Shown here: piece by piece, positions 8,046-20,485 of the stretch | Numbering within the stretch: position 1 is the stretch's first letter | Layout: every line of letters starts with the position of its first letter | Notes under the pieces: generated by a model | The model's input: only the letters and a program-made list of their open reading frames with translations | Database searches by the model: none | Told to the model about the DNA's origin: nothing | Translations under genes and position numbers: made by a program | IMG/VR virus record: IMGVR_UViG_3300031952_000064 | Span: 1 to 37,180 of that record | Direction: 5' to 3' (one strand) | DNA from: a virus | DNA length: 37,180 nucleotides

Positions 8046-8217
8046 GGTATGCCTTCAGTCTGGTGATTCTGGTGTCAGCAGTGTCACATGGGTGGCGCTG
8101 GTCAATCTCATTGCCCTGTGCAAGCCATGCGTCAATGTCAGCTTGCATGGTTTCCCTGTCAATGCTTGCCTGTGATGGTGTGCGCTTTGGCTTTGTTTCA
8201 GCTCTTGCCCTTGCCAT
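7981..8217 (-). CDS. Hypothetical basic protein, 78 aa
   Basis: It begins MARARAETKPKRTPSQAS, strongly basic, then a predicted helix with the pattern DAWLAQGNEIDQRHP, seen in small phage DNA-associated proteins. The ATG at 8217 was chosen because AGGAAAA sits directly upstream; an upstream in-frame start would read through the membrane protein gene. It overlaps the preceding membrane protein gene by 20 bases. A nucleic-acid-binding role is only a guess from its charge. Confidence 0.62.
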   Translation of the reverse strand: MARARAETKPKRTPSQASIDRETMQADIDAWLAQGNEIDQRHPCDTADTRITRLKAYHDPRQPATQAPKTVRHPFKQP

Positions 8218-8359
8218 TTTTCCTTGCCCTTTGCTGCCTTTGTCTTTTCCTTGCGTGCCTGCCAATTGCTAAGTCAATCCACAGCAGCAAACCTGTTGCC
8301 AGTATAGCAAAAACAATGCAGCCAAGCACCAGCACAACAGGGTTGATGTTTTCACCCAT
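8198..8359 (-). CDS. Small single-pass membrane protein, 53 aa
   Basis: Starts MGENINPVVLVLG. A hydrophobic segment covers about residues 7-30 (VVLVLGCIVFAILATGLLLW), followed by a very basic cytoplasmic tail (RHARKRQRQQRARKNGKGK). This gives a clear N-out, C-in membrane topology by the positive-inside rule. The ATG overlaps the previous stop by one base (TGATG). Function unknown; its size, topology and nearness to the endolysin make a lysis or membrane-modifying role possible. Confidence 0.68.
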   Translation of the reverse strand: MGENINPVVLVLGCIVFAILATGLLLWIDLAIGRHARKRQRQQRARKNGKGKS

Positions 8360-8861: not shown

Positions 8862-9052
8862 GGCTGCACCTCATCACGCTTGGCTGTGTCATCAGGTGCG
8901 CCTTCAGCTTCAGCCTGTGCCGCTGCCTTGGCCAGCTTGTCAGCCAGCACGCGCTGTGCATCATTCACAACCGCATTGCGTAATTTGCGCCACAACAGAT
9001 ACTTGCCCACCTGTTGTCTGTTACTCAATCGCCTTTGGCTTGTCTTGCTCAT
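8858..9052 (-). CDS. Hypothetical basic protein, 64 aa
   Basis: Begins MSKTSQRRLSNRQQVGKYLL, then a helical Ala-rich segment ending in an acidic tail. AAGGAAA lies nine bases upstream, behind a CCAACC leader. The first 32 bases overlap the end of the 52-aa membrane protein gene in another frame. No family recognised. Confidence 0.66.
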   Translation of the reverse strand: MSKTSQRRLSNRQQVGKYLLWRKLRNAVVNDAQRVLADKLAKAAAQAEAEGAPDDTAKRDEVQP

Positions 9053-9179
9053 GGTCTGGTTTCCTTGGTTGGGTTGGGTTTTCTTTCAGTGATTTTTTCA
9101 GCCTAACAATGCCAACAGTGTGCCACGCTATCATGCACCAGCCAATTGCAGCCATGCACCACCAAAAATTGTCACTCAT
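9021..9179 (-). CDS. Small membrane protein, 52 aa
   Basis: Starts MSDNFWWCMAAIGWC. A Trp-rich hydrophobic segment covers residues 5-24 and a charged, basic tail follows. The ATG lies inside the end of the preceding gene (ATGAGTGA, 8-base overlap). Two tandem small membrane proteins directly after the endolysin suggest holin, antiholin or spanin-like functions, but no lipobox or Rz-type coiled coil is visible. Confidence 0.64.
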   Translation of the reverse strand: MSDNFWWCMAAIGWCMIAWHTVGIVRLKKSLKENPTQPRKPDHEQDKPKAIE

Positions 9180-9369
9180 CTGCACATTGCCTTTTGTGGC
9201 CTTGTTCAGTGTAAAACTTTTTCACTTTTTTGTCATCAGCAAAATCATGGCCACACAGCACAGCCCATGCTTGCTGCTGCTTTTTGTATCGGTATCTGGT
9301 GAATGCCTCATCAATGGCAGCAAAGATGACTGCCAGCACAATACAAGCCCATATCAATTCACCAGTCAT
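9172..9369 (-). CDS. Small membrane protein downstream of endolysin, 65 aa
   Basis: One N-terminal membrane segment at residues 4-22 (ELIWACIVLAVIFAAIDEAF), then a basic stretch TRYRYKK and a hydrophilic, charged C-terminus with two Cys. The start overlaps the endolysin stop by ATGA. The position suggests a lysis accessory gene (second holin, antiholin or an atypical spanin component). This is an inference from context; no homology was recognised. Confidence 0.72.
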   Translation of the reverse strand: MTGELIWACIVLAVIFAAIDEAFTRYRYKKQQQAWAVLCGHDFADDKKVKKFYTEQGHKRQCADE

Positions 9370-9809
9370 GTCAGCGCCTCAAATGTTTCTTTGGTCAATT
9401 GGAAGTGCATTCCGTCAGGTGATGACCAGTTGCCGCCCCAATCAAAGCCAGCATCAGTGAAGCATTTGACAAAGGCTTTTGACAGGGTTGGTGGTGCATG
9501 GTATCTGTTCCACGCTGCATTGACATCAATGGCCACGCCCCATGAATGCAGGCTTGGGCTTGCACCGTTTCGCTTATTTCGGATATTGAAACAACCATCC
9601 CATGTTTTCAGCTCATTCACACAGCCTGATTTGATAAGGTTCACAAAGGCTGCTGACAATGGCTGCACCATTGCTTTGTTGCAGTAAAGCCTTTTCGGTA
9701 TCACGCCAATTTCCAGTGCTGTTGGCACATCCCAAAGGGTCATGGCGCTTTCCTTTTCAGGTGCGCCAAACTTATTAAAACAGTCAAGGTGCGTCAAAAG
9801 TTGTGCCAT
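9366..9809 (-). CDS. Endolysin, M15-family peptidase (VanY/L-Ala-D-Glu peptidase type)
   Basis: A 147-residue single-domain peptidase. Zinc ligands are in the expected order: SLHSWGVAIDVN (His88, Asp95) and DGMHFQL (His135), with a catalytic acid in the DG preceding the last His. M15 enzymes of this kind cut the peptide stems of peptidoglycan and are common phage endolysins. No signal peptide is seen, so a holin is needed for release; the recognised holin candidate lies about 11 kb away at 21005-21187. The ATG at 9809 shares one base with the phosphatase stop (TAATG), so the two are made from one message. Confidence 0.87.
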   Translation of the reverse strand: MAQLLTHLDCFNKFGAPEKESAMTLWDVPTALEIGVIPKRLYCNKAMVQPLSAAFVNLIKSGCVNELKTWDGCFNIRNKRNGASPSLHSWGVAIDVNAAWNRYHAPPTLSKAFVKCFTDAGFDWGGNWSSPDGMHFQLTKETFEALT

Positions 9810-10483
9810 TATAAAATCCTCAACTGGTTTGCATACCATGTGACCAGTGCAATGTATGCTGGTTCAACTGGTTCAGGAAAAGGGTTTCCATTTTCAAGGG
9901 CTTCAGCCAGTGTTTGCCCCATGCTGGCCATCATGTATGACATCACAAAAGCACCTGTTCTGTCATGGCCATGTTCACAGTGAATGTACACCACTGCACC
10001 CTGTTCAGTGTGCAGCAGGCTGGTCACCCAATTCATCATGTTCAGGTAGTCAAATTGGCTTGGCTCAACCAACTGGCAGTTGTCATCATCAGTGCAGTCC
10101 TGAATGGGAAACCACACCACACTGCCTGCATTGCCAGCAATCTGACTGCCATGCTGCACATCAATTTTCTGGCCTTGAAAAAATGGTGGCCAGTTGGGTG
10201 CAGGGTATAAGCTGTCAAAATCCTGTGCAAATGCTTTGAACTCATCACACAGGTGCTTGTGTTGCTTGGTGTCAACATCAATCACTGACACATCAATCAG
10301 TTTGCTTTTTGTCAGGTCAAAGCCAGCAATCAATTCAGCCAGCCTGTCAGCCAGTTGGCTGTATGCAAATGCGCCATGCTCATGGTGTAGCAGTGGCTCA
10401 TTGCCCCTGACCAGAAAGTTGGTGTGGCCTGCTGGTGTGTCGATAGTGTCAACCAGATATACAGTTGAAGGGTCAAAGCTCAT
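9809..10483 (-). CDS. Protein phosphatase, Cys-based dual-specificity/tyrosine type
   Basis: A 224-residue protein with the P-loop signature VVYIHCEHGHDRTG at about 164-177 (HCx5R: Cys169 nucleophile, Arg175), followed by a helix GAFVMSYMMASMG. The FPIQDCTDDD segment, about 40 residues before the P-loop, is placed where the general-acid loop lies in this family. It should hydrolyse phosphate esters, most likely on phosphotyrosine proteins, though some relatives use lipids or inositol phosphates. The ATG at 10483 overlaps the stop of the 52-aa membrane protein (ATGA) and the stop overlaps the endolysin start. Such an enzyme in a lysis-linked operon is unusual; the target is unknown. Confidence 0.85.
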   Translation of the reverse strand: MSFDPSTVYLVDTIDTPAGHTNFLVRGNEPLLHHEHGAFAYSQLADRLAELIAGFDLTKSKLIDVSVIDVDTKQHKHLCDEFKAFAQDFDSLYPAPNWPPFFQGQKIDVQHGSQIAGNAGSVVWFPIQDCTDDDNCQLVEPSQFDYLNMMNWVTSLLHTEQGAVVYIHCEHGHDRTGAFVMSYMMASMGQTLAEALENGNPFPEPVEPAYIALVTWYANQLRIL

Positions 10484-10638
10484 GGTGTCACCAGTTGGTT
10501 GGTTGTGTAAACAATGGCCGCTGCCAGTGCAATGATTGTGATGGCTGTGGCTGCTGTCACAAGGTGCGCTGCTAGTCTGGCATCCTTGACAAACAAGGTC
10601 AACCAGACAAAACACCACCACAGCTTGCTGCTTTTCAT
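10480..10638 (-). CDS. Small membrane protein coupled to phosphatase, 52 aa
   Basis: Starts MKSSKLWWCFVWLTLFVKD. Two hydrophobic stretches, about residues 6-17 and 25-45 (HLVTAATAITIIALAAAIV), are split by KDAR, so one or two membrane passes. The ATG lies one base after the preceding stop, and the TGA overlaps the phosphatase ATG (ATGA). Translational coupling suggests a functional link with the phosphatase, for instance anchoring it or acting in lysis. No family recognised. Confidence 0.7.
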   Translation of the reverse strand: MKSSKLWWCFVWLTLFVKDARLAAHLVTAATAITIIALAAAIVYTTNQLVTP

Positions 10639-10639
10639 A

Positions 10640-10870
10640 TCATTCTGCCTTGCCATAATTCATTGCCAACAAAGCTGATATTGCCCTATCAAGCCAAAAG
10701 ACATCACCAGCATACAGTGTGGCAGCATCAGTTGATGGCACAAGTTTTCCCTTGTATGCGCTGTGTGCTTCACTGGTGATTTTGGCAATGTCTGCTGCTT
10801 GGTCACGCAATGCAACAGATATTGCATGGCGCTCAACCAGTTTTTTCATCACTTCATTTTCAGTTGTCAT
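10640..10870 (-). CDS. Hypothetical protein, 76 aa
   Basis: Starts MTTENEVMKKLVERHAISV and is predicted largely helical, with a DVFWLDRAISALLAMN segment near its end. It is the first gene behind the promoter at 10914-10942, with a GGGCTG hairpin and then GAGGA before the ATG at 10870. It therefore leads the operon containing the phosphatase and endolysin. Function unknown. Confidence 0.75.
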   Translation of the reverse strand: MTTENEVMKKLVERHAISVALRDQAADIAKITSEAHSAYKGKLVPSTDAATLYAGDVFWLDRAISALLAMNYGKAE

Positions 10871-10889
10871 GGGTATTTCCTCAGTTGTT

Positions 10890-10905
10890 GGGCTGCAATC
10901 AGCCC
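10890..10905 (-). promoter_or_regulatory. 5' leader hairpin GGGCTG-loop-CAGCCC
   Basis: A perfect six-base inverted repeat with a four-base loop lies just downstream of the -10 box and upstream of the Shine-Dalgarno. The same stem is found at 18838-18853 and 20366-20381 in the same position relative to promoter and gene. It could stabilise the 5' end of the transcript or bind a protein. It has no U-tract, so it is not a terminator. Confidence 0.65.
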
Positions 10906-10913
10906 ATGTGTTC

Positions 10914-10942
10914 AATATAGTGCCGCGTCACAGGTATGTCAA
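10914..10942 (-). promoter_or_regulatory. Sigma70-type early promoter P7
   Basis: The minus strand reads TTGACA (10942-10937), a 17-base spacer holding GTGACGCG, and TATATT (10919-10914). It is the best match to the sigma70 consensus among seven related promoters in the window. A perfect 7-3-7 palindrome abuts the -35 box upstream. It should drive the operon starting at 10870 (phosphatase, endolysin, perhaps onward to methyltransferase and terminase). Confidence 0.83.
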
Positions 10943-10948
10943 CACCTT

Positions 10949-10965
10949 TTGCAAAATATTTGCAA
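10949..10965. promoter_or_regulatory. Operator-like palindrome upstream of P7
   Basis: TTGCAAA-ATA-TTTGCAA: perfect seven-base arms with a three-base centre, six bases upstream of the -35 box and directly after the stop of the sigma4-like gene. Related AT-rich palindromes sit at the same place before promoters at 13.1 and 20.4 kb. Candidate binding site for a dimeric regulator or an UP element. Confidence 0.65.
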
Positions 10966-11607
10966 TTATTTTTTGGCAAAGCTGATGCTGACCCCAAGGC
11001 TGGTGTCATATTCAATTGTATGCCCAAGGTCAACATGGTGTTGCAGCCTGCTGATGTTGTTTGGGTGGCGTAATTTTCTAAGCGCCTTAGCTTCAATCTG
11101 CCTGACTCTGGCAGGTGTCACACCCATCACATCACCAGTTTGGCCAAGGGTCATGTCATGAAAAAACCGCAACCTGATTGCCTGCTGTTCACGGGCTGTC
11201 AGGGTTTCAATGGCCGCTGCAATGGCCGCTGTGGTTTCTGACTCTTGCACATGGTCAAGCAATGGCTGGTCATCATAGGTGTCACCACCAAGCATAAGGC
11301 TGGCCACCTGTTCATGTGATAGGTCAAGGTCAGCAAAGTTGGTTTCAAGTGGTCGCACCTGTTCACTTGACCAAAGCTCATCAGGCAGGCAGCCAAGCAC
11401 ATCACACAAGCCACGCGCTGCAACTGTCAGGCTGCCATCTGGCTTGATTGGGCTGGCCTTCAGGTTTATCAGGTCATTAACACCAGCGTATGGCAGGCCA
11501 TTGGCTTCACACCACTTGCCACCAGTTTCACCGCCAGCGGCTTTGATGGCTGCCAGTATGCGGTTGTTTCTGACCTTGATGGTCAGCTTGTAATCTTTGA
11601 CGGTCAT
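10966..11607 (-). CDS. Sigma region 4-like regulator with N-terminal XRE-like HTH
   Basis: A 213-residue protein. Residues about 14-80 look like an XRE/lambda-repressor fold (NNRILAAIKAAGG, then KWCEANGLPYAGVNDLINLK). Residues about 134-190 closely match sigma70 region 4: LTAREQQAIRLRFF, then the HTH MTLGQTGDVMGVTPARVRQIEAKALRKLRH, equal to the -35 recognition helix and flanks of RpoD. Region 2 (for -10 binding and melting) is absent, so it is not a complete sigma factor. It could bind RNA polymerase or TTGACA boxes and redirect transcription; related proteins are encoded by other lytic phages. The ATG overlaps the SSB stop (ATGA), and promoter P7 lies at its 3' end. Confidence 0.8.
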   Translation of the reverse strand: MTVKDYKLTIKVRNNRILAAIKAAGGETGGKWCEANGLPYAGVNDLINLKASPIKPDGSLTVAARGLCDVLGCLPDELWSSEQVRPLETNFADLDLSHEQVASLMLGGDTYDDQPLLDHVQESETTAAIAAAIETLTAREQQAIRLRFFHDMTLGQTGDVMGVTPARVRQIEAKALRKLRHPNNISRLQHHVDLGHTIEYDTSLGVSISFAKK

Positions 11608-19989: not shown

Positions 19990-20334
19990 TCAAAAGTTGA
20001 AGTCATAGAAGTATTTTGGTTTATCTGCCAGCACATAAATATTGCCATCTGCATCCTGCCAGCGCCTTTTGGCTTTGCTGTACCTGATGGCCAGCGTGCC
20101 AGCTTCAGGGTTGCTGCTGTATGTGTATCGCTGCACATTCTGGTTGCTGCAATGGGCTGAAAAGCCACCAGCATGAAACACCAATTCATCTTTGTTCAGC
20201 AGCTCACTGTGGTTCATTGGCCTGATGGTCAGCTTGTTTGGGGTGTTCACCTTGATGACCTCAAATGGGTGAATGTCTGACCAGCCATGAAGGTTTGCAA
20301 AGGGCTTCATGTTGGTAGGGTTGATTGCTGTCAT
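19990..20334 (-). CDS. Hypothetical protein, 114 aa, first early gene
   Basis: MTAINPTNMKPFANLHGWSD..., probably beta-rich (HPFEVIKVNTPNKLTIRPM, AGTLAIRYSKAKRRWQD). The C-terminal DADGNIYVLADKPKYFYDF suggests a small barrel. It is the first gene behind the tandem promoters at 20390-20418 and 20486-20515, so likely expressed first after infection. GAGGA lies eight bases before the ATG. A host-takeover role is possible but unproven. Confidence 0.75.
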   Translation of the reverse strand: MTAINPTNMKPFANLHGWSDIHPFEVIKVNTPNKLTIRPMNHSELLNKDELVFHAGGFSAHCSNQNVQRYTYSSNPEAGTLAIRYSKAKRRWQDADGNIYVLADKPKYFYDFNF

Positions 20335-20365
20335 GGTCAAATCCTCAGTTGGGTTGGGTGGTTCA

Positions 20366-20381
20366 GGGCTGCAATCAGCCC
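20366..20381 (-). promoter_or_regulatory. 5' leader hairpin GGGCTG-loop-CAGCCC
   Basis: Stem and loop identical to the one at 10890-10905; flanking bases (CCCATGTG) are shared too. Lies between P1 and the first early gene. Confidence 0.65.
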
Positions 20382-20389
20382 ATGTGCAA

Positions 20390-20418
20390 AGATTAGTGGC
20401 GCGTCACATCAATGTCAA
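20390..20418 (-). promoter_or_regulatory. Sigma70-type early promoter P1
   Basis: TTGACA (20418-20413), 17-base spacer with GTGACGCG, TAATCT (20395-20390). Strong -35, weak -10, followed by the conserved leader hairpin. Upstream palindrome at 20425-20441. Confidence 0.7.
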
Positions 20419-20424
20419 CAGGTT

Positions 20425-20441
20425 TTGCAAAGTATTTTCAA
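20425..20441. promoter_or_regulatory. Operator-like imperfect palindrome upstream of P1
   Basis: TTGCAAA-GTA-TTTTCAA, the same 7-3-7 layout as before P6 and P7, six bases from -35. One arm matches the P7 site and the other the P6 site, giving a hybrid with a single mismatch. Confidence 0.58.
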
Positions 20442-20485
20442 TTATTTTTCAGGGTATATTGCCAGCAAAAAAGCAATCATCTTTC

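What the first reader, a model, noticed from the sequence alone, without database searches (positions are those of the whole stretch)
9366..10638. Protein phosphatase sandwiched by translational coupling between a membrane protein and the endolysin
A HCx5R phosphatase (9809-10483) overlaps a 52-aa membrane protein gene at one end (ATGA) and the M15 endolysin at the other (TAATG), downstream of the strongest early promoter. Phosphatases are not usual parts of lysis cassettes. It may counter a host kinase-based defence, alter host signalling, or time lysis.
Basis: partly seen in the sequence, partly recalled or inferred. Interest (0 to 1): 0.75.

Follow-up and report, generated by a model that had tools for sequence, protein, structure and literature searches.

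The report
Roaming phage phosphatase beside lysis gene
The phage does carry a real phosphatase gene squeezed between a small membrane-protein gene and the cell-wall-cutting gene, but relatives show it is a rare travelling cargo gene that sits elsewhere in other phages, so it is probably a host-modifying enzyme rather than part of the lysis machinery.

Summary
The layout is confirmed. On the minus strand a 52-aa membrane protein (10480-10638), a 224-aa HCEHGHDRTG phosphatase (9809-10483) and an M15 endolysin (9366-9809) are joined by ATGA and TAATG overlaps, below the best sigma-70-like promoter in the window. The "sandwich" itself is not special: at least 21 of about 70 junctions in the genome overlap this way, and the endolysin has its own GAGG ribosome site.

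The phosphatase belongs to a small, sharply bounded family: seven further viral contigs and two Andreprevotia genomes, 38-49% identical, with P-loop HCEHGHDRT invariant. Phage dN/dS is 0.08-0.14, and AlphaFold (pLDDT 83) gives a PTP/DSP fold with no close structural relative. Elsewhere it sits in T4-like tail regions (five contigs), in a jumbo phage, and next to a GH64-like gene. Only one other phage has it in the same SSB-to-terminase interval, beside different putative lysis genes. None of 69 endolysin relatives carries it nearby, and no viral relative has M15. The three-gene order is therefore unique here.

Best reading: a mobile cargo phosphatase that modifies a phosphorylated host target, not a lysis part. 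The target is unknown; counter-defence is neither supported nor excluded. The promoter has an 82%-identical twin at 20.4 kb.

The parts
9809..10483 (-). Cys-based phosphatase of the PTP/DSP superfamily, 224 aa, P-loop HCEHGHDRTG (Cys169, Asp174, Arg175)
9366..9809 (-). M15 peptidase endolysin, 147 aa; ATG overlaps the phosphatase stop by 1 nt (TAATG), own Shine-Dalgarno GAGG
   Evidence: Pfam Peptidase_M15_4 E 6.6e-15; PHROG endolysin hits; 69 relatives in IMG/VR; junction
10480..10638 (-). 52-aa small membrane protein, possible holin-like; stop overlaps the phosphatase start (ATGA)
   Evidence: one predicted TM segment, no significant family hit
10640..10870 (-). 76-aa ORF, first gene of the operon, function unknown
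   Evidence: ORF with good SD behind the promoter; no family hit
9172..9369 (-). 65-aa single-TM protein downstream of the endolysin (possible lysis accessory)
   Evidence: ATGA overlap with the endolysin, one TM segment
9021..9185 (-). 54-aa ORF with hydrophobic N-terminus, follows and overlaps the 65-aa gene
   Evidence: ORF and hydropathy
10914..10942 (-). sigma-70-like promoter TTGACA-17-TATATT of the operon
10860..10985 (-). promoter/leader region with an AT-rich palindrome-like box and leader hairpin GGGCTGATTGCAGCCC; twin of 20320-20455
   Evidence: 82% identity to the twin; exactly two copies of the motifs, none of 100 shuffles reaches two
20320..20455 (-). twin promoter/leader region, upstream of the 116-aa ORF 19990-20340
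10966..11607 (-). sigma-70 region 4 protein just upstream of the operon promoter (position of a late regulator)
   Evidence: Pfam Sigma70_r4 E 1.8e-18

Best explanation
The gene encodes a cysteine-dependent phosphatase of the PTP/DSP superfamily, from a small family that moves as cargo between unrelated tailed phages (and is in two Andreprevotia genomes). In this phage it came to lie in the compact operon that also carries the endolysin, so it shares that operon's promoter and overlapping starts, but it is not a working part of lysis. Proposed chemistry: Cys169 attacks the substrate phosphate, Arg175 holds it, and the invariant P-loop Asp174 serves as acid/base, as Asp165 does in MptpB, since Asp132 of the preceding loop is not invariant. 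Proposed role: it acts in the host cytoplasm on a phosphorylated host molecule, most likely a protein, to favour the phage. Shown: gene, motif, family, purifying selection among the closer members, predicted fold, scattered genomic positions. Inferred: catalysis, Asp174 as the acid, intracellular action, substrate class.
For: Full-length homologs at 38-49% identity in seven viral contigs and two bacterial genomes, at 340 bits or more, against 33 bits or less for other DSPs with the same motif. HCEHGHDRT is invariant in 10 of 10. dN/dS is 0.08-0.14 in phage pairs. AlphaFold model pLDDT 83, pTM 0.86, matching PTP/DSP enzymes. Contexts differ: five T4-like contigs beside tail sheath and tube genes, with a MUG113/T5orf172 (GIY-YIG-type) ORF in L017, L023 and L026; a 205-kb phage; L113 between SSB and ParB/terminase; Andreprevotia beside GH64. 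No copy near 69 endolysin relatives and none in 30 whole records. No M15 in any viral relative. Absent from 50,697 named phages and 72,556 plasmids by tblastn.
Against: One relative (L113, a 48-kb phage) has the gene in the same SSB-to-terminase interval, about 1 kb after a membrane-protein gene and a DUF5675 gene, so a positional link to that genome region in two phages is possible. No activity, substrate or host is known. Many of the viral contigs are fragments. The window copy is the most divergent member (branch 1.44).
Confidence: 0.68

Rival explanations
1. Lysis-timing or lysis-regulating phosphatase: it is made with the small membrane protein and the endolysin and sets when or how lysis occurs.
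For: Overlapping genes in one operon below one promoter. One other phage (L113) has it about 1 kb from a membrane-protein gene and DUF5675, in the same SSB-to-terminase interval.
Against: Apart from L113, no other viral relative shows such a neighbourhood: five T4-like members lie in tail regions and the jumbo-phage member lies among nucleotide- and RNA-related genes. No endolysin relative has it. Such overlaps are common in this genome, and the endolysin has its own ribosome site.
Confidence: 0.1
2. Counter-defence enzyme (a special case of the best explanation): it removes phosphates placed by a host or prophage kinase-based defence such as Stk2 or KKP.
For: Kinase-based defences exist (Stk2; KKP, where the phosphatase PfpC neutralises the toxic kinases, PMC11341870). 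Patchy distribution with conserved catalytic loop fits a conflict gene.
Against: No linkage to known counter-defence genes was seen, no target is known, and strong purifying selection in the phage members gives no sign of an arms race.
Confidence: 0.2
3. RNA or nucleotide phosphatase: it removes 5' phosphates from RNA or small phosphates, as baculovirus BVP and capping-enzyme RNA triphosphatases do.
For: The best sequence-profile match in the PDB with the nine-member alignment is BVP (E about 6e-4), then mRNA capping enzyme; they share HCxHGxxRTG. BVP is also among the top fold matches. In the 205-kb phage the gene lies near a KptA RNA 2'-phosphotransferase and a phosphoribosyltransferase.
Against: The P-loop has Asp (GHDRT) where BVP and capping enzymes have Asn. 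Matches are limited to the P-loop and following helix and are weak. Other PTP/DSP enzymes score equally in fold comparison.
Confidence: 0.15
4. Lipid or inositol-phosphate phosphatase of the MptpB (ALP) type.
For: The P-loop HCxxGxDRT resembles ALP HCXXGKDR[TA]G and myotubularin HCSDGWDR, with an Asp important in catalysis (PMC3091653). PTP-like phytase is the top hit of the first, 4-sequence profile. Pfam Y_phosphatase3 is a weak hit.
Against: The landmark Lys of the ALP motif is His here. The phytase hit drops to E 0.07 with the wider profile. Most bacterial hosts lack phosphoinositides (general knowledge).
Confidence: 0.1

Closest known systems
Dual-specificity phosphatases (Pfam PF00782, PTP superfamily)
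   Same: HCx5R(T) P-loop, strand-loop-helix core; all nine aligned members hit DSPc
   Different: Window copy just under the Pfam cut-off (32.8 against 33.5 bits); about 140 N-terminal residues with their own conserved blocks (NYLVRGNEPL, WPP, WYPVQGCTD..NC) match no library
Atypical lipid phosphatases, MptpB/LipA type (PMC3091653)
   Same: HCxxGxDRT with Asp in the P-loop
   Different: Lys of HCXXGKDR is His; no overall sequence match
Baculovirus RNA 5'-phosphatase BVP (1yn9) and capping-enzyme RNA triphosphatases
   Same: HCxHGxxRTG; best PDB profile hit with the wider profile
   Different: Asn-Arg replaced by Asp-Arg; match confined to about 50 residues; E about 6e-4
PfpC phosphatase of the KKP prophage module (PMC11341870)
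   Same: A phage-encoded phosphatase connected with phosphorylation-based defence
   Different: Phosphatase partner of two Ser/Thr kinases in a toxin-antitoxin set; no kinase gene was recognised near the window gene
SIW14-like phosphatase of an uncultured Caudovirales phage (A0A6J5RU40)
   Same: A phage protein with the same general fold
   Different: 14% identity, TM-score 0.36; not the same family

Membership tests
Cys-dependent PTP/DSP superfamily | HCx5R[ST] phosphate-binding loop | tested here: met
   HCEHGHDRT in 10 of 10 members
Cys-dependent PTP/DSP superfamily | PTP/DSP fold | tested here: met
   AlphaFold model pLDDT 83; leading PDB matches are PTP/DSP enzymes, though TM-scores by query length are only about 0.3-0.47
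Cys-dependent PTP/DSP superfamily | phosphatase activity dependent on the Cys | not testable with these tools
   needs a purified protein
Pfam DSPc (PF00782) | gathering score of 33.5 bits | tested here: not met
   32.8 bits, E 7.1e-8; so placed in the superfamily, not filed as a DSPc member
Atypical lipid phosphatases (MptpB-like) | HCXXGKDR[TA]G with strictly conserved Lys and Asp | tested here: not met
   Asp present, Lys replaced by His in all members
BVP/capping-type RNA 5'-phosphatases | HCTHGxNRTG loop | tested here: not met
   HCEHGHDRT: Thr to Glu and Asn to Asp
Phage lysis-cassette component | recurrent linkage with endolysin or holin in independent genomes | tested here: not met
   0 of 69 endolysin relatives nearby, 0 of 30 whole records, no M15 in 7 viral relatives; one looser case near DUF5675
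Anti-defence protein | restores phage growth against a defence system | not testable with these tools
   infection assays needed

The most novel reading that the evidence does not exclude
A previously undescribed family of phage cargo phosphatases that switches off host or prophage phosphorylation-based antiviral defences, carried by T4-like, jumbo and small tailed phages.
Probability: 0.2. Interest if true: 0.72.

Novelty: new variant of a known kind. Interest (0 to 1): 0.42.

Why it matters
It defines a compact, sharply bounded family of phage phosphatases not matched as a family in Pfam, PHROGs or NCBIfam and absent from the named phages searched, with one invariant active-site loop and a conserved N-terminal region of its own. 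Repeated retention in unrelated phages suggests that removing a phosphate from some host molecule helps infection, and a single Cys mutant would test this. It also warns against reading gene overlap with an endolysin as a functional link.

Tried and rejected
Single-sequence search of IMG/VR with the phosphatase found nothing; a catalytic-motif scan was needed. Structure prediction with four sequences failed (pLDDT 43); nine sequences gave a good model. tblastn against named phages and plasmids gave no match. Rescanning with the wider alignment and with the WYPVQGC motif gave no new members, so the family looks exhausted in IMG/VR for members bearing these motifs. A broad draw of 369 genomes of the same bacterial class gave only the known Andreprevotia genome. 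Rejected: an RNA feature or an open-frame artefact (full-length homologs, dN/dS 0.08-0.14); the longer GTG start at 10621 (homologs begin at the ATG at 10483); a strong RNA-phosphatase or lipid-phosphatase assignment (matches confined to the active-site loop). A search for the promoter pattern in IMG/VR gave nothing. Paper searches for phage-encoded dual-specificity phosphatases gave nothing relevant. The literature library is open-access only, so 'undescribed' means not found here.

Full report
WHAT IS THERE. The window is an IMG/VR virus record of 37,180 bases. All three genes of the finding are real ORFs on the minus strand: a 52-aa protein with one predicted transmembrane segment (10480-10638), a 224-aa protein with HCEHGHDRTG and Cys169 (9809-10483), and a 147-aa M15 peptidase (9366-9809; Pfam Peptidase_M15_4 E 6.6e-15, several PHROG endolysin hits). 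The junctions are ATGA and TAATG. A 76-aa ORF (10640-10870) precedes them, and TTGACA-17-TATATT at 10942-10914 is the best sigma-70-like site of the window.

THE OVERLAPS ARE ORDINARY. Of 70 adjacent minus-strand junctions, 21 have 1- or 4-nt overlaps (the automatic gene choice missed the 52-aa/phosphatase junction, so the true count is higher). The endolysin has its own GAGG eight bases before its ATG. The sandwich alone is therefore not evidence of a functional unit.

FAMILY. Pfam DSPc matches the C-terminal third just under its cut-off (32.8 against 33.5 bits, E 7.1e-8). No PHROG or NCBIfam model matches well. A catalytic-motif scan of IMG/VR and profile scans found full-length homologs in seven viral contigs and two Andreprevotia genomes, 38-49% identical. 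HMM scores separate the family cleanly from other phosphatases with the same motif (340 bits or more against 33 or less; the window scores 322). Two further scans gave no new members. Named phages and plasmids have none, nor do other genomes among 369 of the Andreprevotia class and 43 of its family. The P-loop HCEHGHDRT is invariant in all ten, and dN/dS in phage pairs is 0.08-0.14. With nine sequences AlphaFold gives pLDDT 83 and pTM 0.86, and the model matches PTP/DSP enzymes with no close relative.

CONTEXT. In five T4-like contigs (L017, L023, L026, L111, L112) the gene follows the tail sheath gene, near the tube gene; in three of them a MUG113/T5orf172 ORF lies next to it. In a 205-kb phage it is among nucleotide- and RNA-related genes including KptA. 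In L113 (48 kb) it lies between SSB and ParB/terminase, as in the window; SSB, ParB, NinB and small terminase are also related (47, 69, 35 and 32%), but the neighbouring genes are a membrane protein and DUF5675, not M15, and about 1 kb away. In Andreprevotia it is beside a GH64-like gene. Conversely, 69 relatives of the endolysin (up to 70% identity) have no copy within the held flanks, and 30 of those whole records have none. No viral relative of the phosphatase carries M15. The three-gene order is unique to this sequence as far as these collections show; several contigs are fragments.

MECHANISM. By the chemistry of the superfamily, Cys169 is the nucleophile and Arg175 binds phosphate. Asp132, in the loop where PTPs carry their acid, is replaced by Ser in one member, whereas Asp174 inside the P-loop is invariant. 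In MptpB-type enzymes the P-loop Asp is essential for catalysis (PMC3091653), so Asp174 is the likelier acid here (inference). The Lys that defines that family is His here, so membership is not claimed. The best reading is a host-modifying cargo enzyme; substrate class is open, with protein first, RNA or nucleotide second, lipid or inositol third. KKP and Stk2 show that kinase-based defences exist (PMC11341870), but nothing in the sequence ties this protein to them.

PROMOTER. The operon's promoter and leader are 82% identical to one other place, 20455-20320, upstream of another minus-strand gene: same AT-rich box, same TTGACA, same spacer motif TGTGACGCG, same leader hairpin GGGCTGATTGCAGCCC; two copies of each motif against none in 100 shuffles reaching two. 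The two operons are probably controlled together. A sigma-70 region 4 protein lies just upstream, the place of lambda Q (general knowledge), so whether the operon is early or late is open.

VERDICT. Observation confirmed; lysis coupling not supported as function; a rare, new family of cargo phosphatases within a known superfamily. Interest is moderate.

Noticed in passing
window 10985-10860 and 20455-20320, minus strand: Twin promoter/leader regions, 82% identical, with a shared AT-rich palindrome-like box and leader hairpin, heading two separate operons.
   Followed up: partly
window 10966-11607: Sigma-70 region 4 protein right upstream of the lysis-operon promoter, in the position of lambda Q.
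   Followed up: no
window 8198-8359, 9021-9185, 9172-9369, 10480-10638: Three or four small membrane-protein genes lie around the endolysin; which one is the holin is unclear.
   Followed up: partly
L125 11485-18316 (Andreprevotia lacus): The bacterial homolog sits by a GH64-like gene, an RNase T2, a phage-sheath-like gene and a PLAT/PI-PLC protein, possibly a set of secreted or injected enzymes.
   Followed up: partly
L112 3989-4665: The phosphatase copy is split near its C-terminus by a frame change: sequencing error or decay.
   Followed up: no
L107 493-8613: The 205-kb phage has KptA RNA 2'-phosphotransferase, a phosphoribosyltransferase and an AAA_33 kinase near the phosphatase.
   Followed up: no
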